A stretch of DNA of 64,000 nucleotides from Fibrobacter sp. (GCA_024398815.1 JAKSIL010000017.1:1-64000), one strand, 5' to 3'; counted from the first letter of the stretch, positions 46,340-57,076 are shown. Program-made: numbers and translations. Notes: generated from the sequence alone by a model not told the origin.

Positions 46340-46930
46340 CTACTTTACCGGAATTTCGAAATCAAGGGTCTGGTTTCCTTTTGCGCTCGTGATGCGTGCT
46401 TTGAGCACCTTCGCCTTGGGCTTTGCATAAATAGGCACAACCATCAAGTTGCTGACACCGTGGTCTTCACTCAAAGTGGCTTCGGTATCGGCAGACGTTT
46501 TCGAGAATATCGGCTTTTTTCCCTTGTCGTAAATGGAATAGTTCAATTCACGGACAAAGCCTTTTTTGATTTGAGTTGTCGGCACCTGGAAATAAACGAT
46601 GCCGCCCTTGGGAACTTTCCGCAAGCTGTCCTTGATTTCTTCTTCAGTGGCAAAATCGGCCTCCATGGCCATGCGCACATCTTTTTTCAACTTGTCGCAA
46701 GATTCGTAAACTACCGAGATATTGTACTTGGCGTCTTCCGGAATGGCATCAGGACGAATGTCGCGAATTTTCGAATTGTTCTGGTAATACTCCCAGCGAC
46801 CATTGTCGTGCAAGATGACCGTCGCTCCATTGGACGCCGTAGCAATCAAATCTTCTGCAAAAGAAAGCGTTGCAAGAAAGAGCAAGCAAAGCAAGACAAA
46901 CTTTGAAACGCCATTAAATTTATACACCAT
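46340..46930 (-). CDS. Secreted protein of unknown function (196 aa)
   Basis: ATG at 46930 with CAGGAG upstream. Residues ~10-25 (FVLLCLLFLATLSFAED) form a signal peptide. The mature part starts with ATASNGATVILHDNGRWEY, a motif seen in small periplasmic proteins of several Gram-negative phyla, and goes on to a mainly beta region of ~100 residues (IVYFQVPTTQIKKGF, LMVVPIYAKPKAK). The family was not identified with certainty and no enzyme motif is visible. It precedes the exonuclease gene in the same transcript and diverges from gluQ. Confidence 0.7.
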   Translation of the reverse strand: MVYKFNGVSKFVLLCLLFLATLSFAEDLIATASNGATVILHDNGRWEYYQNNSKIRDIRPDAIPEDAKYNISVVYESCDKLKKDVRMAMEADFATEEEIKDSLRKVPKGGIVYFQVPTTQIKKGFVRELNYSIYDKGKKPIFSKTSADTEATLSEDHGVSNLMVVPIYAKPKAKVLKARITSAKGNQTLDFEIPVK

Positions 46931-47007: not shown

Positions 47008-47874
47008 ATGGCGGGAATTATTCGATTTGCACCTAGCCCGACGGGCTACCTTCATGAAGGGCATCTGCTTTCGGCCCTTTACGTGTGGGCCGCCGCAAAA
47101 AAGTGGAACTTAAAGATCCACCTGCGAATCGAAGACCATGACCAAGGACGAGCACGCCCAGAATACATCCAGAGCATTTTTGAAGACCTCTCGTGGTTCG
47201 GCTTCAAGTGGGATTCCCAAAGCATCCAAAGCGCTCGCAACGACATCTACACTGCAGCCTTGGAAAAACTCAAACGACAAAATTTAGTTTATCCGTGCTA
47301 TTGCAGCCGCAGACAACTCGAAGAGGAAAATCCCAAAAGCGAAACAGGAGAAATTGTCTACCAAGGGAAATGCCGCACTTTAAACGAAATCGCTTCTGAC
47401 GTTCCTCACAACTTGAGAGTCGTCGTTCCAGACAAAATCATTCATTGGCACGACCTTCGAATGGGCGATTTCGACGAGAATCCAAAAATACAATGCGGGG
47501 ATTTCCCTATCAAGGATAGGGACGGCCAATGGACCTACCAGTTCGCCGTATGCGTGGACGATATCGAAGACGGCATCACCCATGTAGTTCGCGGAGAGGA
47601 CATTAGAAGCTCAACTGCCAGGCAGGTTGCCCTGATGCAGATTTTAGGAAGGCGAGAACCGCCAATATACCTGCACCACGCACTTATCGTCGATGCCTCC
47701 GGCAAAAAGCTCTCCAAGCGCGAAAAAGCGCACAGTTTGCGACAGGATATCGATGCAGGGATTTCTCCCGAAGAAATTCTTGGAAAGTTATGCCAAAAGG
47801 CCGGTTTACAAGACTCTTTTGTTCAGATTTCTTTACAAAACGCTATAAACCTAGTCGCAGCCAGCATTCCGTAA
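47008..47874 (+). CDS. gluQ: Glutamyl-Q tRNA(Asp) synthetase
   Basis: Attaches glutamate to queuosine at position 34 of tRNA(Asp). The 288-aa protein is a GluRS catalytic domain without the anticodon-binding part: FAPSPTGYLHEGH (the HIGH region, ~8-20), RIEDHDQGR (~42), and KKLSKREKAH (KMSKS-type loop, ~232). CYCSRRQL with YQGKC supplies the Cys-Cys-Tyr-Cys zinc ligands that mark GluQ enzymes. Start ATG 47008 directly follows a TATATT-6 promoter. Q-modification is thus expected in this organism. Followed by the pseudo-helicase gene 32 bases later, which has its own -10. Confidence 0.93.
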   Translation: MAGIIRFAPSPTGYLHEGHLLSALYVWAAAKKWNLKIHLRIEDHDQGRARPEYIQSIFEDLSWFGFKWDSQSIQSARNDIYTAALEKLKRQNLVYPCYCSRRQLEEENPKSETGEIVYQGKCRTLNEIASDVPHNLRVVVPDKIIHWHDLRMGDFDENPKIQCGDFPIKDRDGQWTYQFAVCVDDIEDGITHVVRGEDIRSSTARQVALMQILGRREPPIYLHHALIVDASGKKLSKREKAHSLRQDIDAGISPEEILGKLCQKAGLQDSFVQISLQNAINLVAASIP

Positions 47875-47906: not shown

Positions 47907-50900
47907 ATGCAGCACGCATCAGTTTCATCGTCCATTCTTAAGATTTGCCAAGAAGCCGCTCTTTTTGATTCCAAAGACCGTCTTCTCAACTTCCAGACGA
48001 AAAGCGAATACCAAACGCCTTTAATGCTGGAACCCGGAGACCAGTTCTACGAAAAGTGGCGACTGAACAACAGTCCCATTTCATTTGACCATTTCTTATC
48101 GGATGCAAAGACCTTATCGGCAACTCAAAAAGAAGAAGTGAGGACTCGCTTCTTCAAGGTTATCGAAGAAAAGAACGACGATTTTGGAAAAACTGACCTT
48201 TACCTGGTGCTAGGCTTTTTAAAATGGGAAGGGAACGCGCTTGCGCCGATACTTTTTGTACCGCTCGATTTTGACCCCAAGACAAAATCCCTGACGCTTT
48301 CAAACCGCACCCCCATCGAAAACATCATCCTTCGTGAAAGACTCAAGGATTCTTACACGCTGCCGACTGTCGAAGAAGCGACAATCAACGGGGAATTCAG
48401 CATACTCCTCTATTTTTCGCTTTTTGAAAAAGCCATCGTGCAAGAGCGCAGCTGGAAATTTACAAGGCACGGACTGTGCCTCGCCTTCTTCAACACCGAT
48501 AGACTGCGACTGAAAAAATCGTTGGAACGAGGAATCGACGAAAAGAAACTGGAGAATTCCTCGTTCTTCAACTCCCTCTTAGGGCCTGACGGATTCCAGA
48601 TAAGGGAATCGGCATTTGAAGATGCCGACGTCGACCAGGTGTTCAATCCTATTGACCATCATTTTTTGTACACGACTGATTCCCACACTACGAAAGTGAC
48701 CGTGGACGCTTTGGACGACGAAGTCCATGCCTACGCCGTCCAAGCATTGCCCGGCACTCAAAAGATGAAGCTCACGGCAAACATTGTCGCCGAATCCGTC
48801 GCAAACAAGAAAAGTACTTTGGTCGTTGCCAGAAGAGCCGTTTCGAAAAGTTCCTTCTGCAATCACTGGAGCCCGATGTTCCGATCGTTCAACGGCCCCG
48901 AACGGGCTGAGCTGGAACCCGAGCTTCGCAGCATGCGAGATTCGCTCAGCAAATACTACCACATGGTCAACTCCAAGGTAAAGCCGGCAAACGTCAGACT
49001 GTCGACCATCCTTTCGGAAATGTCCTTGTTTGCATCCACGAAAACAAGATTCCCAGAAAAAATCTTCCGCGAAGCTGCTGAATTCGACTTCAATTCCTAT
49101 CAAAAAGCAAGCCAGCTAATTAACGAAATTCTTCACATATTCTTTGAAGAACAAGGAGCCGAGGCTCGCCAGATTTTTTCAAAAATCAAAGTAGCCTCAT
49201 TAGATAAGGAACTGCGCCAGGAAATCGAAAATCATTTGCAGTATGCTGCAAAGACTGTCGAACAAATAAAGCCCCTTATCGATACCTTTTCCAAGGCAGG
49301 GCTTTTTCCGACAGGCGTGTATATTTCGGGTCTCGACGAAATCATGGAGCGTATACAGGAGAACTTTGACGAGAACACTCCTACCTACGACCAGTGGGAA
49401 CTCAAGTCCAACAACTGGCAAGCCTACCGCGACTCCCTAAAGGCTTTGCCCGAAGCCGGGGACAAGTGGGTCCGTTACCGTAGACAGACATCCGACATCT
49501 ACACCGATGCTGCCGTCGACGAAAACATCATGTCGATTCGCGAGGAATTCGCAGAGAGCCTGAAGGCAACCCTCAAGGGCTTGTCTGACCATTACAGGAC
49601 CTCGCGTAAGCAATTGCTCAAGTTGTTCAAGAATCCTAAATCCATCAAAACGGATGCAGAACTTCTGGACCTGGTCGACACTCTCATTGAGCTTCAAGAA
49701 AACAAGCGCGCCTACAAGGACACGTCGGTCCTCGGAAACCACCTCCTAGGCAGAGACTGGCTTTTCGAAAGGTCCAATTGGGTCGAGTTGAACGCCAAGA
49801 TAACCTACTTGTTCGACTTCCGCGAAGCCCACAAGCGCGACCCGCAGTTGGACCTCCTTCTGCAAATTCTTGAAAACTGGCACGACATAAGAGAGCTTCA
49901 ACCGCAATTCAAGGATTTTGTCAAGGCAATCAAGAACCTGTCGGAATCCATCCAGTTCCTGTCCAAGGAACTGTGCATAGAAACGCCGCTTGAAAGTTTA
50001 AGCATAGACAAATGGTCCGACGAGCTCCAGCAATGGAACGACAAGTGGAGTTTGTTCGACAAGCACCTCACCATAAACGGCAAATGCAACAAGCTTGCAG
50101 AAATGGGATGCATCGAATTAGCGGCAAACCTTAAGGAAACCAACATTGCGAACAACGAACTGGGCAAGGCATTCTCGCACTACTGGTGCGCTTCGCAAAT
50201 TCAGGTCGTTACAAAAACATGTCCGGACATGTTCGCCATTTCTGCAAAGGACCGCGCCAAGAAAAGCAAGGACTACCGAAACCTCTTGGACCAATTCTGC
50301 AACGCGAACTTCCGCGATGTTCATGAACTCGTCAAGAGCGATCCAAGTCTACTTACAGTGAAGTTCGCCAACGAAGTTTACGACTTCAGCAAAGACGAAC
50401 ACTTTGACTTAGCCATCATTCTGGACGCCGACTGCATTACTGTCGCCGAAGCCATCCCGCTAATTTGCACGGCAGATAAAGTCATTTTCATTGGCGACCC
50501 GCACATGCCAGCCCTTGAACCTTTGACCAGGGATGCCAATGCCAACGTCATTCCAAGGCACACGACGTTCTACTTGGAAAACATTCTTGCGGCATGCCTA
50601 CGCACAGGCATCCCCACACGCGAACTGAGGTTTACCGACAATTACAACGACAACAACCTTGTCTATTTCGCCAACAATAAATTCTACAACAATAGTCTAA
50701 AGCAGTTCCCTCGTCCAAACAGAGACAAGTCCCACAGCGAATCGCTCAAGATTTCTGCAGACAAGGTTGCCGCTGTAGCCCAAGCCGCGATACACCACGC
50801 GGAACGCCGCCCCGGCCAAACACTAGGCATTGTTGTATTCAACGAAGCCTGTATTCCGCAAATTGAATCCTCCATAAGAAGTCTGGTCATCGAAAATCCG

Positions 50901-52004
50901 AATTTGGGACGTTTCTTTGAACAAAGTAACCCCCTCACGAAATTCTTCATCAAGACGCCCGAAAGGGCTGTCGACAGATTCCGCGATGTCATTTTCGTCT
51001 GCGCCGAACCTGAAAGCGGCATAAGCGGAGAACGCAAACTGGCAGTTTGTTCAACGCTCGCCAAGCAAGAACTGCAGGTATTCATTTCGGAAGCCGAAAT
51101 CAACAAACAAAAGACATCCAAGGCGAACCTGTTCTGGGATTGGCTTTTACACTTGCAAAAGCACGACAACATCAGCACACTCGACTCCCACACTTCGGAA
51201 AGTCCTTTGCGCGAACCCATCATGGACGCCTTGCTTGCGCAAAACATCATCTTGGAAACATGCTACGGTCCCAACGGCATTTCCGTTGGTCCTGTAGTCG
51301 TCGACGCCAACAACTCGAAACGATTCCTTGCCGTCATTGAAGACGACTGCACTACGGATAAGTTTAGGGAATCCATAGAAGACCGCGAATACATACGCCC
51401 CGTACACATGAAACAGCTGGGCTGGAAAATTCTCAATATCTGGACTCCGATTTGGTTTACCGCCAACGAGGATGAAGTAAGCCATCTTCAAACAACTATT
51501 TCCATCGAACAGAGCGTCGCTCCTCCGCCACCAGACGAAAGCGAAGAAGAAAAGGAAAACATCTTCGACGAACCTCAGTTCAAGGTTACGCCGTATGTCG
51601 TCACCCATCCGAAAATCGAAGGGACATCTCACGACAAGCCCATCATGGAGCTTTCTGCGGCCTCCATCATCGTACAGCTCAAGTTCTACGTCGACAAGGA
51701 ATCCCCCATCCACGAAGAACTCCTGCTGCAGAGAATTCTGGAACTGCACCATGTAGACAGAGCAGGCCCCATGCTGATGAAAGTCTTGAGCGAAGCTGTA
51801 AAGCAAGGTTTCCAAAGCCAAAAATTCATAAAGACAGGCAAGTTCTTCTACTCGACAAAGAATACGCCCGCAGTACTTAGGGACCGCAGCCAAAGGCCTC
51901 AAAGCGAACGAAAGCTCATGTATGTTTCGCCCGAAGAACGAGCCCTTATACCGTCTAAAACAGACGAGCACACCATAAGGCAGATTCTCGGACTCCTAGA
52001 ATAA
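47907..52004 (+). CDS. DUF4011 / SF1 helicase / Vsr-like nuclease / DUF3320 family protein with degenerate catalytic motifs (pseudo-helicase, 1365 aa)
   Basis: Architecture matches the large helicase-nucleases often found in defence islands. Residues ~10-230 fit DUF4011 (DRLLNFQ, LYLVLGFLKWEG, APILFVPLD). The helicase core starts near 270, with an ~550-aa insertion. However: Walker A (normally GPPGTGKS) reads ALPGTQKMK (~279); motif II (normally DEAS) reads LDADCIT (~838); motif III (normally GDPKQLPP) reads GDPHMPALEP (~862); motif VI (normally NVAVTRAR) reads AVCSTLAK (~1045). The Vsr-like nuclease segment (~1102-1165) keeps IEDD (normally IECD) and LGWKILNIW but loses the IDL aspartate (VGPVV). 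DUF3320 follows (~1250-1325), then MYVSPEERALI. The 4.1-kb frame is intact, so it is not a decayed pseudogene. Likely a non-catalytic scaffold, nucleic-acid binder or regulator; function is inference. Leaderless-type start; terminator follows. Confidence 0.8.
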   Translation: MQHASVSSSILKICQEAALFDSKDRLLNFQTKSEYQTPLMLEPGDQFYEKWRLNNSPISFDHFLSDAKTLSATQKEEVRTRFFKVIEEKNDDFGKTDLYLVLGFLKWEGNALAPILFVPLDFDPKTKSLTLSNRTPIENIILRERLKDSYTLPTVEEATINGEFSILLYFSLFEKAIVQERSWKFTRHGLCLAFFNTDRLRLKKSLERGIDEKKLENSSFFNSLLGPDGFQIRESAFEDADVDQVFNPIDHHFLYTTDSHTTKVTVDALDDEVHAYAVQALPGTQKMKLTANIVAESVANKKSTLVVARRAVSKSSFCNHWSPMFRSFNGPERAELEPELRSMRDSLSKYYHMVNSKVKPANVRLSTILSEMSLFASTKTRFPEKIFREAAEFDFNSYQKASQLINEILHIFFEEQGAEARQIFSKIKVASLDKELRQEIENHLQYAAKTVEQIKPLIDTFSKAGLFPTGVYISGLDEIMERIQENFDENTPTYDQWELKSNNWQAYRDSLKALPEAGDKWVRYRRQTSDIYTDAAVDENIMSIREEFAESLKATLKGLSDHYRTSRKQLLKLFKNPKSIKTDAELLDLVDTLIELQENKRAYKDTSVLGNHLLGRDWLFERSNWVELNAKITYLFDFREAHKRDPQLDLLLQILENWHDIRELQPQFKDFVKAIKNLSESIQFLSKELCIETPLESLSIDKWSDELQQWNDKWSLFDKHLTINGKCNKLAEMGCIELAANLKETNIANNELGKAFSHYWCASQIQVVTKTCPDMFAISAKDRAKKSKDYRNLLDQFCNANFRDVHELVKSDPSLLTVKFANEVYDFSKDEHFDLAIILDADCITVAEAIPLICTADKVIFIGDPHMPALEPLTRDANANVIPRHTTFYLENILAACLRTGIPTRELRFTDNYNDNNLVYFANNKFYNNSLKQFPRPNRDKSHSESLKISADKVAAVAQAAIHHAERRPGQTLGIVVFNEACIPQIESSIRSLVIENPNLGRFFEQSNPLTKFFIKTPERAVDRFRDVIFVCAEPESGISGERKLAVCSTLAKQELQVFISEAEINKQKTSKANLFWDWLLHLQKHDNISTLDSHTSESPLREPIMDALLAQNIILETCYGPNGISVGPVVVDANNSKRFLAVIEDDCTTDKFRESIEDREYIRPVHMKQLGWKILNIWTPIWFTANEDEVSHLQTTISIEQSVAPPPPDESEEEKENIFDEPQFKVTPYVVTHPKIEGTSHDKPIMELSAASIIVQLKFYVDKESPIHEELLLQRILELHHVDRAGPMLMKVLSEAVKQGFQSQKFIKTGKFFYSTKNTPAVLRDRSQRPQSERKLMYVSPEERALIPSKTDEHTIRQILGLLE

Positions 52005-52020
52005 GCTTCATAAACAAAAA

Positions 52021-52053
52021 GCCAAACCTTCAAACGAGGTTTGGCTTTTTTTT
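52021..52053. terminator. Bidirectional rho-independent terminator
   Basis: GCCAAACC (52021-52028), 9-base loop, GGTTTGGC (52038-52045) then eight T; on the other strand TTTTTG follows. It lies between the convergent 1365-aa and SPOR genes and can serve both. Confidence 0.92.
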
Positions 52054-52068
52054 AAAGATATATACAAA

Positions 52069-52476
52069 CTAGCGAATTTTCACGACAAAAGCGTTAATGT
52101 TGTATGCAGAGAGTTCACGAGCCTTGTCGTCGGCAGCCTTCTTGGTAGTCCATCCACCGCCGCGCAACTTGTAGAAGGGAGCGTCGAACACCACCTGTAT
52201 GGCGAATCCAGTACTTGCCGCAATCTGGGCTCTACGGCGCTGGGCGGCATCGAAGTCAGCCACGGCTTCGAACTGAAGCATATAGTAGCCGTCGGAGGCT
52301 TTGCCTTTCGAAGCATTCTTGGCGACAGCCGCGTCATTCACTTTGGAAGTGTCGCGCAAGGAAGAATTGAGTTCAGGCTTATATTCCTTGCCACGGAAAA
52401 GGCTGTCGAGATCGGTTGGCTCACCCGCCCAAGTCAGGGCGCACAATAAAGCAGCTATAGTCAAAATCTTTTGCAT
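52069..52476 (-). CDS. Secreted SPOR-domain protein (135 aa)
   Basis: MQKILTIAALLCALTWAGE is a signal peptide. Residues ~62-135 (YYMLQFEAVADFDAAQRRRA, FYKLRGGGWTTKKAADDKA, NINAFVVKIR) have the strand-helix-strand repeat of SPOR domains, which bind denuded peptidoglycan glycan strands, often at the division site. The protein therefore probably resides in the periplasm at the cell wall. There is no Shine-Dalgarno sequence; TAAATT lies 6 bases before the ATG, the leaderless arrangement seen elsewhere here. It stands alone between two terminators. Confidence 0.85.
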   Translation of the reverse strand: MQKILTIAALLCALTWAGEPTDLDSLFRGKEYKPELNSSLRDTSKVNDAAVAKNASKGKASDGYYMLQFEAVADFDAAQRRRAQIAASTGFAIQVVFDAPFYKLRGGGWTTKKAADDKARELSAYNINAFVVKIR

Positions 52477-52543: not shown

Positions 52544-55500
52544 TTACTTGATTCGGCCATGGCCACGGCGAACACCCCAGACTTCGGTCAAGGACTTCTT
52601 CTTCTGCTTGCCATGCTTGTCTAGCTTGACGTAGGACTCGTACTTGGTGATGTAGGCTCCAGAGGCGACCAAGCGGCCCTTATCAGAAAGGAGGTTCCAA
52701 GCCACGTAGAAGTTCTTCGGATTCTTGACGCAGTCTTCGCCGCCAAAGAATTCCTGGCCGAATTCATCCTTGTTGTACTTGTCAACGCAATAGACCTTGC
52801 CAGAGACATGGGCGACGCCATTGCCAAGGTTGGTGAAGTAGTCAACCGTGTAATGGAATTCAACCTTGTCCTTGTCTACATAATCCGGAGAGTTCGGGTC
52901 GGTGTATTCGACCTGGGAGTTGATAAGAGCACCCATGTCGCATTCCACGAAGTGACCCAAGGTGTACGGATACTTGGTCTTGACATGACCAATATCCCTC
53001 GTGGTGGAAACAGGATAAACCTGAACGACCGGAGTATTGGCAGGAATCGGATCGGGGTTGGTTTCGGTGAAGTTGATGGTGTTCACGTCGACCTTAGCTT
53101 CACCCACAACCGGCACCCACGGGCTGGGCAGACGATCAGTGGAGCTGTAATCCGTCGGAGAGTTCCAGTTAGGACCAGCACCGACACGGATGGTATCCTT
53201 GCCCATGCTGTTGATTTCAGCAGTATCGGACCACACGAGGGCATCGGCACGGAAGCGGACATAGTCACCCACGTGCGGAGTCGGATTGTTCTTGGAAGTA
53301 TTGTTGTAGCGCAAGCTTATGGTATCCTGCTTGTCCTGCGGCTTACCGGGAGAATTGGAGTTCCTGTAGCGAGCGGCACCTTCCTCGGCAGTCGTTGCAG
53401 AGTTCAGATAGTAGCTGAAAGCTTCCTGAGCGACATCGGATGCAAGCACCTTAGCCGGTTCGGAGAGGATGATAGTCACCTTGTCGATGGTACCGTCTTC
53501 GTTATCGGCTTCAGAACGAGCGGAGAGGATGATCGGAGCGATACGGTCGGTGATATCACCTTCGAAGCTCTTCGCCACAGACTTGCCCTTATCCACATAG
53601 CTGGCCCAGGAGCTAACGATACCGGCACCTACGGTCTTGACTTCCTTGGAAAGGGCAAGTCCGCCAATTCCAAGGTACGGCTGGCAACGAGTTTCACCCT
53701 TTTCATCGGTGATGTCGCAAACAGCGGCTTCCCTAATCTGGTCCTTATAAATAGGAATAGAATCGCATTCCTTAAACTTGATTGTACCGTCATCCGTACA
53801 AGATTCGGTATCCCACTTCACGAAGACGGAGTCAGGCAACGAGTCCTTATGGAACGGACGGTTGTAGTAGATAGTCAGGGAGTCGCCAATACCGTCAAGA
53901 TATTCCTGGTTTTCGTTGAAGTACGGAGACGGAATATTGTAAGTTCCGGAGGGCTTAGCACCCCTTACGTCAAAGATATCGGTAAGGACCGGATAAGGTA
54001 CAGGCGGTTCCTTGAAATGGAGCGGAGTGTAGGTTGCCGAGGTGAGCTTCGGGTTATCGCCCACGACATGGAGGATTGCCGTACTGTCGGCAGAGGTACC
54101 CGGAGCATATCGATAAGATCTGATGGAGCGAATCGTCACAGAAGCACGTCCGTTGATGAACTGCGTCACTGTACCTTCCTGCAACTGGATGCCCTGGGAA
54201 GTCTGGCTACCGAGGGAGAAGTTGAAGTTGCAGCTATCACACGGAGAGAACGAAGTCCCGTCGGAATTGGGAGACAAGGCCAACAGGTAATAGGTGTAGA
54301 AACTACCCACCCAGAGTTCGTTGGTATCGGCATCGCCAGTCACCTGCTTCGTAGAAGTGGAGTCCTCGACAAAGACAATCTGCGGTGCGTAGAAGCGAAT
54401 CTTCGCCACTCTTGTACGGCCTTCGACGGTCACGTTGTATTCCTGGACAGAATTTTCCATGGCGATGTTCGGGACAGTCACAAAGACCGTATCGACGCCG
54501 GATGCAGGAATGGTACGGGAAGTTCCCGGAACAAGCTGTTCATAGACTTCACTGCCCGTAGTCGGGTCAATGGTCTTGGTATACATGGTAAGACCACCGG
54601 CATTAAGAATATACGTCTGACCGACAGCGGTAGATGCATCTATATCGCAAGGGGTACCATCGGTAGTTTCTTCACCGATAGCAGAAACGTAGATAGGAAC
54701 AAGCTGTTCTGCCATAGCTGCGGCAACGAACTTGTATGTACCGCCAGGAATGGCAACACCGTTGGAGTCGACCGCAATACCGTCCTGGGTAAGCACTTCG
54801 AGGTTACCGCTCACCTTGAACGAAATCTTCACAGGCTTGCCACCGGCACCTTCAACAGAAGCCACCAAGTTGTAACGTCCAGGTCCAAGGCCAGAGAGTT
54901 TGCTCTTGTCAATAACAGGGGTAGACTTATGAGTCAGGTCAATGCCACCATAGTAAACGCTGGTCGGCTGACCAGAAACGAGGTTTTCAGCAATGGTAAC
55001 ACCCTTGGCCGTCTGGATGGTGTAGATAATGTTCTTCGGAATGTCGTCTCCGCACCAGGTCTGCGTTTCGGCACCACCGGCAGCCACTGCTGCGCAGGAA
55101 CCGTCACCGGATTCCGTGTAGCACAGTTCGTATTCAGTCTTGGCACCCTTCTTTGTCGGAATGGATTCCAAGCCGCTGGTCTGCTGGATGTACATGTTCG
55201 TCTTGATACGCACGTTACTCATGTCGGTACGGCGGTCGCAGAAGAAGATGTCGATATCATAGGACTTGCCGGTCACCAAAGCACCGTTTTCACCAGTGAA
55301 CTTGTCGAGGTTCACGGCAGCAGGTGCGGCAAGGTGGGTACCACCCAAGTCCACGGCCAGCACGTTGTCAATGAACACCCAAATATCGTCGTCACCACGG
55401 AAATAGAACATCATGCCCGGACGGAACACGAAGTTGGCGTGGGATTCGAAGCAGTACATCTGATTGTTGTTGCCCTTGATACGGGTGTCCCAAGTAGTAT

Positions 55501-57022
55501 TGTCATAAACGTCGGGATTCGTACCGGAATCGAATTCACCAGCGGATACCGGATAGGAATCGATGTACGGAAGACCTGTGTTCGGGTTCTTGGCGCCCCA
55601 GTTGGCCACGTTACCGAGAGCCTGCTTTGCGGCAGTAGAAATAGAAGTCGCGGTACCGGCGCCATAACTCACGTTGCCGAGCCCGGAGCGAAGGGTTGCA
55701 GCAGTAGCGCAATCGCCTGTGCAGAGGCCGGCCTTGATAGAGTCGGTAAGGTCGTTAAGCGGAGTAAAGGCGCCAGTGGGTTCATTGAAACTGTCGTATT
55801 CCCACAGGCCGTCCTTGGCCAAAGTGAAGGGCACGTCACGGCAATGCTGGAAGTTCACGCCCGGAGTTTCCTTGAACATGGCGTCGAAAGCTTCCTCGCT
55901 AGCAAAGCAACCGCTGGCAGCATTGTACATCGGCTTCTTATAATGGGCGTCAGTCTTATCGGCATGCAGAAGAGTTTTCTTCACAATGCCCGGAGTAACA
56001 CCAATGCAGGGCACGGTGTTCGCCGCACCATTGCCCGGATAGTTGTACTTAGCCGTAGCCACATAGCAACCATTCGAAGCAACCTGAGGATAAGCATCGC
56101 AAGTAAAGGCGCCATGGAGAGATGCGTCGGTATCGTAGAGCAAGGCGGCCAAGGAATAAGCACAAAGGCTCGGATCGGCGACACCGGGGTCGTGGTCATA
56201 AAAGCCCATGTTCAGTTCACCTTCATCGTCCCAAAGGTCAACATCGGGCACAAAATAAAGTTTGTCGGAACCATAAAGGGAGAACATCGTCGGCATATCG
56301 AGAGGCGTAACGTCATCGGCGTTCCAACCGCCGGCACCAATCGCATTTTCAAGATCCGTATCGGTATCCATGAAGACAATCATGTTGCTCGGAGGTTCTT
56401 CGTCGAGCCACATGGCGTAGTACCATCCGCACATTTCGGGGTCAACCGTAAGAGCCTTGCCACTGGCAAACGTTCCATCTGGAGAATACATGGGAACGGA
56501 AGACTTCCAGGCCTTGTCGTTAGGAATGAGCAAATAGAACTTCTTTGCGTTAGGAGGCTCCTTGCCAACAAGGGGTACGGTCGCCTTGTCCGGATTCGGA
56601 GAAATCCAAAGTTCGCCCGTGGCGCGGTTGAAGTCGGCACAGCTGAAGCCGCCCACATCTGTACGCATATTGGCCACGTTCATCTGGGTAGAGCTAATGC
56701 ACTGGTGACCGTTACTGCAATCGTTCGCCGGCGAATCGCCGATGATGAAATCAAGAGCCTGATTCGTACCGCCAATCATGGCAGTACTGATTTCGTACCA
56801 GCCCGCAAATTTCTTGCTAGCCGTAAAGGCCACCTGGTTGCCCCCGGCAACAGCGTATGCACGATTCCAGCCAGTAGGTAGCTTGAGGTAGACAGTACCT
56901 TCGCTGAATGCAGAACAAGTCATAGCGGCGAACGCACCCTGCACCCCTGCAAGGAGCATCGCAAAACCAATTACAAACCCAAACAGGTTAGTCTTTCTTT
57001 TTTTCATAGTGTCTTTATCCAT
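52544..57022 (-). CDS. Fibro-slime domain surface protein (~1492 aa)
   Basis: ATG at 57022 is preceded by GGAG with 7 bases spacing; MDKDTMKKRKTNLFGFVIGF begins the signal peptide, cleaved near AFA. The fibro-slime domain lies at ~480-640: FESHANFVFRPGMMFYF, GDDDIWVFIDNVLAVDLGGTH and YDIDIFFCDRR are its characteristic PA14-like features. Fibro-slime proteins of F. succinogenes have been linked to cellulose binding and the outer membrane. N-terminal to it are domains with many Cys pairs; C-terminal are Ig-like domains (PIILSARSEA...VTIILSEPAKV near 1170) and a final FlgD/Ig-like element (VAWNLLSDKGRLVASGAYI) resembling a type IX sorting domain. The last residues are basic. Single-gene transcript with terminator. 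Confidence 0.92.
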   Translation of the reverse strand: MDKDTMKKRKTNLFGFVIGFAMLLAGVQGAFAAMTCSAFSEGTVYLKLPTGWNRAYAVAGGNQVAFTASKKFAGWYEISTAMIGGTNQALDFIIGDSPANDCSNGHQCISSTQMNVANMRTDVGGFSCADFNRATGELWISPNPDKATVPLVGKEPPNAKKFYLLIPNDKAWKSSVPMYSPDGTFASGKALTVDPEMCGWYYAMWLDEEPPSNMIVFMDTDTDLENAIGAGGWNADDVTPLDMPTMFSLYGSDKLYFVPDVDLWDDEGELNMGFYDHDPGVADPSLCAYSLAALLYDTDASLHGAFTCDAYPQVASNGCYVATAKYNYPGNGAANTVPCIGVTPGIVKKTLLHADKTDAHYKKPMYNAASGCFASEEAFDAMFKETPGVNFQHCRDVPFTLAKDGLWEYDSFNEPTGAFTPLNDLTDSIKAGLCTGDCATAATLRSGLGNVSYGAGTATSISTAAKQALGNVANWGAKNPNTGLPYIDSYPVSAGEFDSGTNPDVYDNTTWDTRIKGNNNQMYCFESHANFVFRPGMMFYFRGDDDIWVFIDNVLAVDLGGTHLAAPAAVNLDKFTGENGALVTGKSYDIDIFFCDRRTDMSNVRIKTNMYIQQTSGLESIPTKKGAKTEYELCYTESGDGSCAAVAAGGAETQTWCGDDIPKNIIYTIQTAKGVTIAENLVSGQPTSVYYGGIDLTHKSTPVIDKSKLSGLGPGRYNLVASVEGAGGKPVKISFKVSGNLEVLTQDGIAVDSNGVAIPGGTYKFVAAAMAEQLVPIYVSAIGEETTDGTPCDIDASTAVGQTYILNAGGLTMYTKTIDPTTGSEVYEQLVPGTSRTIPASGVDTVFVTVPNIAMENSVQEYNVTVEGRTRVAKIRFYAPQIVFVEDSTSTKQVTGDADTNELWVGSFYTYYLLALSPNSDGTSFSPCDSCNFNFSLGSQTSQGIQLQEGTVTQFINGRASVTIRSIRSYRYAPGTSADSTAILHVVGDNPKLTSATYTPLHFKEPPVPYPVLTDIFDVRGAKPSGTYNIPSPYFNENQEYLDGIGDSLTIYYNRPFHKDSLPDSVFVKWDTESCTDDGTIKFKECDSIPIYKDQIREAAVCDITDEKGETRCQPYLGIGGLALSKEVKTVGAGIVSSWASYVDKGKSVAKSFEGDITDRIAPIILSARSEADNEDGTIDKVTIILSEPAKVLASDVAQEAFSYYLNSATTAEEGAARYRNSNSPGKPQDKQDTISLRYNNTSKNNPTPHVGDYVRFRADALVWSDTAEINSMGKDTIRVGAGPNWNSPTDYSSTDRLPSPWVPVVGEAKVDVNTINFTETNPDPIPANTPVVQVYPVSTTRDIGHVKTKYPYTLGHFVECDMGALINSQVEYTDPNSPDYVDKDKVEFHYTVDYFTNLGNGVAHVSGKVYCVDKYNKDEFGQEFFGGEDCVKNPKNFYVAWNLLSDKGRLVASGAYITKYESYVKLDKHGKQKKKSLTEVWGVRRGHGRIK

Positions 57023-57076
57023 TTTGGTTCTCCAGCCAATAGCATATCCAAAGGCACCGGCCCCTGGAGACGCCAC

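What the first reader, a model, noticed from the sequence alone, without database searches (positions are those of the whole stretch)
47907..52004. Intact but apparently catalytically dead DUF4011-family helicase-nuclease
The gene keeps the order DUF4011, SF1 helicase, Vsr-like nuclease, DUF3320, yet Walker A (ALPGTQKMK), motif II (LDADCIT), motif III (GDPHMPALEP), motif VI (AVCSTLAK) and the nuclease Asp (VGPVV in place of IDL) are all changed. The frame is uninterrupted over 4.1 kb with normal codon use, so selection seems to keep it as a pseudo-enzyme. Active members occur in defence islands; a dead one standing alone beside gluQ in ordinary chromosome could be a sensor, decoy, scaffold or partner of an active paralogue.
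Basis: partly seen in the sequence, partly recalled or inferred. Interest (0 to 1): 0.78.

Follow-up and report, generated by a model that had tools for sequence, protein, structure and literature searches.

The report
Core pseudo-helicase-nuclease of Fibrobacter
Nearly every Fibrobacter species carries, at the same chromosomal spot, a very large relative of anti-phage helicase-nucleases that has lost its ATP-burning and probably its DNA-cutting machinery yet is strictly maintained by selection, so it has apparently been turned from a weapon into a non-catalytic housekeeping protein of unknown task.

Summary
The ORF (47907-52004, 1365 aa) is a diverged relative of the DUF4011/PDC-S37/Hhe helicase-nuclease family. 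Ten motif-intact relatives were used as yardstick. Against them it has lost SF1 helicase motifs I, II, III, IV, V and VI and the first nuclease Asp. The same losses occur in all 65 orthologues aligned. Orthologues occur in 93 of 111 genomes of the family (78 of 80 of its own genus) and in no other family of the phylum. They are essentially all open, sit in one place between gluQ and a SPOR gene, and diverge in step with their neighbours; dN/dS is 0.015-0.16 for 16 close pairs. It is therefore an ancient, vertically inherited core pseudoenzyme, not a decaying gene. It has no active paralogue to partner: full-length active copies exist in only 3 of 111 genomes. RecBCD is intact, so it does not replace RecC. 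Its most conserved stretch is a clade-specific peptide, TTIAIEQSVAPPP, just after the dead nuclease; this points to a binding function. Best mechanism (inferred): a RecC-like, ATP-independent nucleic-acid/protein-binding scaffold exapted from a defence enzyme. E1145, D1147 and D1159 of the nuclease are kept, so residual metal or DNA binding is possible.

The parts
47907..52004 (+). Pseudo-helicase-nuclease gene, 1365 aa
   Evidence: open frame; PDC-S37 E=2e-126; orthologues in 93/111 family genomes
47976..48344 (+). DUF4011 domain (residues 24-146)
   Evidence: Pfam PF13195 22.8 bits, cut-off 22.2
48744..48770 (+). Degenerate Walker A / motif I (residues 280-288, ALPGTQKMK; GPPGTGKSQ in active relatives)
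   Evidence: alignment with 10 active relatives and 65 orthologues
48942..50216 (+). Large mostly helical insertion (residues 346-770) between motifs I and II, with pseudoenzyme-specific conserved Trp (W497, W504, W521)
   Evidence: AlphaFold2 secondary structure; invariant columns
50421..50435 (+). Replaced motif II (residues 839-843, LDADC; active DEASQ); L839 in 64/65 and D840 in 65/65 orthologues
50493..50516 (+). Degenerate motif III (residues 863-870; GDxxQ Gln lost)
50625..50645 (+). Lost motif IV (residues 907-913; WHYRS absent, column variable)
50958..50987 (+). Degenerate motif V (residues 1018-1027; QGDE lost, R1026 and D1027 invariant)
51033..51065 (+). Degenerate motif VI (residues 1043-1053; Arg finger R to L/H at 1051)
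51219..51500 (+). Vsr-like MTES_1575 nuclease domain (residues 1105-1198); first catalytic Asp replaced (G1128); E1145, D1147, D1159 kept
   Evidence: Pfam 33.3 bits, E=5e-8
51489..51530 (+). Clade-specific motif QTTISIEQSVAPPP (residues 1195-1208), 99.9th percentile of conservation among windows of its length
51531..51584 (+). Variable acidic linker (residues 1209-1226), low model confidence
51588..51656 (+). Clade-specific motif YxVxHPKIEGTxHDKPI (residues 1228-1250)
51690..51770 (+). DUF3320 domain core (residues 1262-1288)
   Evidence: Pfam PF11784 23.7 bits, cut-off 25
52020..52053 (+). Intrinsic-terminator-like hairpin AGCCAAACC..GGTTTGGCT and T run after the stop codon
   Evidence: sequence read
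47008..47874 (+). gluQ, conserved upstream neighbour 32 bp away
   Evidence: PF00749; synteny

Best explanation
A DUF4011/PDC-S37-type helicase-nuclease entered the common ancestor of a Fibrobacteraceae clade, lost ATPase and probably nuclease catalysis, and was fixed beside gluQ as a core gene. It now works as a non-catalytic protein, comparable in anatomy to RecC (dead SF1 helicase plus dead nuclease domain). The retained two-RecA-domain and nuclease folds hold a nucleic-acid strand or a partner protein without ATP-driven movement, and the clade-specific segments after the nuclease (TTIAIEQSVAPPP; HPKIEGTxHDKPI) dock a partner. Shown: relationship, motif loss in all orthologues aligned, vertical inheritance, purifying selection, retained fold prediction, clade-specific conserved segments. 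Inferred: no ATP hydrolysis or cutting, nucleic-acid or partner binding, housekeeping rather than defence role.
For: The same lesions occur in motifs I, II, III, IV, V, VI and the nuclease Asp in 65 aligned orthologues, while 10 relatives keep the motifs. The gene is found in 93/111 family genomes, including 78/80 of its genus, nearly all as open frames. Synteny dnaQ-h196-gluQ-gene-SPOR holds across genera. dN/dS is 0.015-0.16 for 16 pairs with dS<0.75. Pairwise identity tracks dnaQ (r=0.95) and h196 (r=0.93), and in the gluQ tree carriers form one group with g2-g4 non-carriers outside. AlphaFold2 for residues 246-1365 has mean pLDDT 87, with Foldseek matches to AddAB (2.8e-8), Dna2, Upf1 and senataxin. 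ATP-contact columns are variable (81st and 90th entropy percentile for 285 and 287, 98th and 89th for motif IV columns 911 and 912), whereas motif II became a fixed LDA[DE]. The most conserved window is the clade-specific 1195-1208 segment, 99.9th percentile. RecC as precedent: PMC1185551.
Against: There is no direct evidence of nucleic-acid or partner binding. No partner gene is adjacent: a close gluQ match is absent from G103, which keeps this gene. Net charge of the domains is near neutral or negative, although active relatives are similar. E1145, D1147 and D1159 are kept, so some metal chemistry is possible. One genome in the carrier group, G108, lacks the gene, so it is dispensable at least there.
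Confidence: 0.55

Rival explanations
1. It is still part of immunity: a catalytically dead sensor, decoy or regulator that recognises phage proteins or aberrant DNA ends and signals to another effector.
For: Best-scoring families are phage-defence models PDC-S37, ProA and Hhe; pseudoenzymes with signalling and regulatory roles are known in general (review PMC10211241).
Against: Fixed in one housekeeping neighbourhood across genera, near-universal in the genus, strong purifying selection; defence genes are usually patchy and mobile. No effector gene adjacent. No relative on viral contigs by the patterns used.
Confidence: 0.22
2. It is not dead: a rewired active site, either the nuclease acids E1145/D1147/D1159 with a displaced ligand such as D1133, or the conserved LDA[DE] box, still catalyses a reaction that is not ATP-dependent unwinding.
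For: E1145 is listed invariant; D1147 is 65/65 and D1159 63/65; D840 is 65/65 with an acid at 842 in 64/65. D1133 is nearly invariant, N1135 and N1136 invariant.
Against: First nuclease Asp replaced by Gly, Gln, Ser, Cys or Glu; Tyr/His of the active IECDGxxYH gone; no conserved P-loop elsewhere in the protein.
Confidence: 0.15
3. It is a subunit for an active paralogue (heterodimer of dead and live family members).
For: Precedent of asymmetric RecBCD/AddAB pairs (PMC1185551).
Against: No second match in the own genome at E<=1 (86% complete genome); full-length active members in only 3 of 111 genomes, and those three group far from the pseudoenzyme clade.
Confidence: 0.03
4. It replaced RecC or AddB in DNA end processing.
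For: Same anatomy as RecC; top PDB fold match is AddAB.
Against: A complete operon with RecC-, RecB- and RecD-like products is present in the own genome (1191, 1250 and 688 aa, L156 2712-12082), and operons of the same size pattern occur in other carriers and non-carriers.
Confidence: 0.02
5. It is a decaying pseudogene.
For: Single lesions in two genome bins: one TAG in G031, one frame break in G032.
Against: Open frames of about 1,365 aa in nearly all other genomes and dN/dS of 0.015-0.16.
Confidence: 0.01

Closest known systems
PDC-S37 / ProA / Hhe DUF4011 anti-phage helicase-nucleases
   Same: Domain order DUF4011, SF1 helicase with large insertion, Vsr-like nuclease, DUF3320; significant profile matches
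   Different: All helicase motifs and the first nuclease Asp lost; 1365 aa against 1537-1986 aa for complete sampled active relatives; vertically inherited core gene instead of patchy occurrence; scores far below the ProA and Hhe cut-offs
RecC (RecBCD subunit)
   Same: Inactivated SF1 helicase-like domains and inactivated PD-(D/E)xK-type domain used for DNA binding and Chi recognition (PMC1185551)
   Different: Not homologous at subunit level, different nuclease subfamily, no RecB/RecD partner encoded next to it; the organism has its own recCBD-like operon
Utp25, yeast pseudohelicase (PMC9539457)
   Same: Helicase-like protein described as a pseudohelicase, a component of a core cellular machine
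   Different: Eukaryotic ribosome assembly; not related to the DUF4011 family (only the abstract start was seen here)
Core DUF4011 gene flanking defence hotspot cDHS1 of Pseudomonas aeruginosa (PMC10250203)
   Same: A DUF4011 protein that is a species-wide core chromosomal gene
   Different: Its catalytic motifs were not examined here; it borders a defence hotspot, which was not seen at this gene

Membership tests
DUF4011 / PDC-S37 family | Significant profile match over the domain order | tested here: met
   PDC-S37 E=2e-126 in three stretches; DUF4011 22.8 bits over cut-off 22.2
DUF4011 / PDC-S37 family | Nuclease (MTES_1575) and DUF3320 over the curated cut-offs | tested here: not met
   33.3 bits vs 38.2 and 23.7 vs 25
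Anti-phage ProA (NF058533) / Hhe (NF042953) | Equivalog score above cut-off | tested here: not met
   301 vs 1500 bits; 106 vs 2000 bits
SF1 helicase | Walker A GxxxxGK[ST], DE box, motifs III-VI | tested here: not met
   all degenerate in 65 orthologues
SF1 helicase | Two RecA-like domain fold | tested here: met
   AlphaFold2 pLDDT 87; Foldseek E 2.8e-8 to 1e-6 with AddAB, Dna2, Upf1, senataxin; TM-scores low (about 0.2) because of large insertions and extra domains
Vsr-like / MTES_1575 nuclease | ID[LIM] Asp and IECDG acids | tested here: not met
   first Asp lost; E1145, D1147 and D1159 kept
Defence-island gene | Patchy, mobile, next to defence genes | tested here: not met
   one syntenic housekeeping location across genera; 78/80 genomes of the genus
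RecC-like scaffold | Binds DNA and an active helicase-nuclease partner | not testable with these tools
   no biochemical data; no adjacent partner gene found
Functional gene (not pseudogene) | dN/dS well below 1, open frames | tested here: met
   omega 0.015-0.16 in 16 close pairs

The most novel reading that the evidence does not exclude
A phage-defence helicase-nuclease was domesticated once in the Fibrobacteraceae into an essential or near-essential non-catalytic core complex subunit, a bacterial counterpart of RecC that arose independently, docking its partner through the TTIAIEQSVAPPP/HPKIEGT segment.
Probability: 0.35. Interest if true: 0.8.

Novelty: new variant of a known kind. Interest (0 to 1): 0.62.

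Why it matters
It is a clean natural case of a defence-type enzyme losing catalysis and becoming a fixed chromosomal protein of a whole bacterial clade, with about 90 orthologues, one apparent point of origin on the family tree and specific residues to mutate. It also warns that profile-based defence surveys can count it as defence: PADLOC's PDC-S37 model matches it at E=2e-126, and a rumen survey based on PADLOC reports Fibrobacter among the genera richest in defence systems (PMC11834463). How much of that richness this gene accounts for was not tested.

Tried and rejected
RecC/AddB replacement: rejected, a complete recCBD-like operon is present. Active-paralogue partner: rejected by distribution. 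GluQ as functional partner: weak, since G103 keeps the gene without a close gluQ match, while g2, g3, g4 and G108 have gluQ without it. Displaced P-loop: none conserved. Phage-borne copies: none found with the two peptide patterns used. Structure search of residues 1-700 gave nothing significant, probably because the fragment cuts the RecA fold. An IQ-TREE run failed and FastTree was used instead.

Full report
What is there. The frame 47907-52004 (+) encodes 1365 aa without interruption. Its best library match is the phage-defence candidate PDC-S37 (E=2e-126), followed by ProA and Hhe, two anti-phage proteins, whose NCBI cut-offs it misses by a wide margin; Pfam finds DUF4011, the MTES_1575 (Vsr-like) nuclease and DUF3320 in that order along the protein, the last two just below their cut-offs.

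Motifs. Ten relatives were aligned: six from plasmids of Vibrio, Azospirillum, Rhizobium, Bacteroides, Hymenobacter and Pseudomonas, a Klebsiella Hhe, and three from Fibrobacter genomes. They keep GPPGTGKSQ (or GPPGSGKSQ), DEAS, GDxxQxPP, WHYRS, QGDERD, RRLNVxxxRA/S and an Asp in the ID[LIM] position followed by CDG. The window protein has ALPGTQKMK, LDADC, GDPHMPA, RFTDNY, AVDRFRD, RKLAVCSTLAK and VGPVV..IEDDC. In 65 orthologues the Walker A Gly285 and Ser287, the motif IV Arg and the motif III Gln are lost or rare and these columns vary; the motif VI Arg is Leu or His. The Walker A Lys is kept in 54 of 65. Motif II has been replaced by a fixed LDA[DE]: Leu839 in 64/65, Asp840 in 65/65, an acid at 842 in 64/65. 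In the nuclease the first Asp is lost (Gly in 52/65), but D1147 (65/65) and D1159 (63/65) stay, and E1145 is listed invariant. ATPase function is therefore very probably gone; nuclease function is probably gone but with less certainty.

Distribution and selection. 93 of 111 genomes of the family carry the gene (7 of 11 genera; 78 of 80 in its own genus, the two exceptions being 65% and 71% complete), and no genome of another family of the phylum has an orthologue (profile search: only one weak, helicase-region match outside the family). A scan of 84,980 species genomes returned only Fibrobacter-type records, and a scan of viral contigs none; both scans depend on short peptide patterns. One TAG (G031) and one split frame (G032) are the only lesions seen, apart from copies cut by contig ends. 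The order dnaQ(-), h196(-), gluQ(+), gene(+), SPOR(-) is kept across genera, with partial exceptions at contig ends and in g6, g7 and g11. Identity between orthologues follows that of dnaQ (r=0.95) and h196 (r=0.93); in the gluQ tree the carriers form one group, with g2, g3 and g4 outside and G108 inside as a likely secondary loss. Nei-Gojobori dN/dS for the 16 pairs with dS below 0.75 is 0.015-0.16, low in every domain. Pairs with higher dS give up to about 0.37, where saturation makes values unreliable.

Structure. AlphaFold2 of residues 246-1365 with 41 orthologues gives mean pLDDT 87; Foldseek finds AddAB (2.8e-8), Dna2, Upf1, senataxin and Ighmbp2, so the SF1 core fold is predicted to remain. 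TM-scores are low because of the large insertions and multi-domain layout, so the fold call rests on E-values. By sequence profile only the motif I region of SMUBP-2 is matched in the PDB.

New features. Relative to all windows of its length, residues 1195-1208 (clade consensus TTIAIEQSVAPPP) are at the 99.9th percentile of conservation, immediately after the dead nuclease core. They are followed by a variable acidic linker predicted with low confidence, then YxVxHPKIEGTxHDKPI (93rd percentile). Neither is seen in the active relatives. Residues 1306-1346 (99.7th percentile) and the dead nuclease domain (96th) are also highly conserved. This pattern fits binding rather than catalysis.

Context. 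The own genome has no second member of the family at E<=1, but the assembly is 86% complete. Full-length active members are present in only G035, G060 and G062 and are phylogenetically separate from the pseudoenzyme group (FastTree, midpoint rooted, so the root is not independently tested). The own genome holds an operon of RecC-, RecB- and RecD-like proteins, and other carriers and non-carriers have operons of the same size pattern, so this protein does not stand in for RecC.

Interpretation. Established by computation: relationship, loss of motifs, single syntenic origin, purifying selection. Inferred: absence of catalysis, a binding or scaffold role, and exaptation from defence. RecC is the closest functional precedent: dead helicase-like and dead nuclease-like domains reused for strand handling and sequence recognition (PMC1185551). 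A core DUF4011 gene is also known in P. aeruginosa (PMC10250203). The immune-sensor rival and a rewired active site remain open.

Limits. No expression or biochemical data were available; the partner is unknown; most genomes are metagenome bins; the dN/dS method is a simple counting method; the active yardstick is ten proteins.

Noticed in passing
52544-57076 (-): Very large PA14-domain protein (PF07691, E=2.7e-6), syntenic downstream of the gene in most carriers of the genus.
   Followed up: partly
52069-52476 (-): Small SPOR-domain protein (PF05036, E=3e-8), convergent neighbour in most of the genus.
   Followed up: partly
46340-46930 (-): 196-aa protein with no Pfam match that is conserved and syntenic across genera of the family.
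   Followed up: partly
L156:2712-12082: Complete operon of RecC-, RecB- and RecD-like proteins elsewhere in the same genome (identified from size, order and motif content).
   Followed up: partly
L036 (G103) and L071 (G108): G103 keeps the pseudoenzyme without a close gluQ match; G108 keeps gluQ but lacks the pseudoenzyme, so the two are not obligate partners.
   Followed up: yes
L152:1-7578: On a Bacteroides finegoldii plasmid a DUF3320 helicase-nuclease lies between a reverse transcriptase gene and an rpsA (ribosomal protein S1) gene.
   Followed up: no
L149:3617-11897: On a Vibrio parahaemolyticus plasmid the active relative lies next to two DUF262 genes, a possible defence cluster.
   Followed up: no
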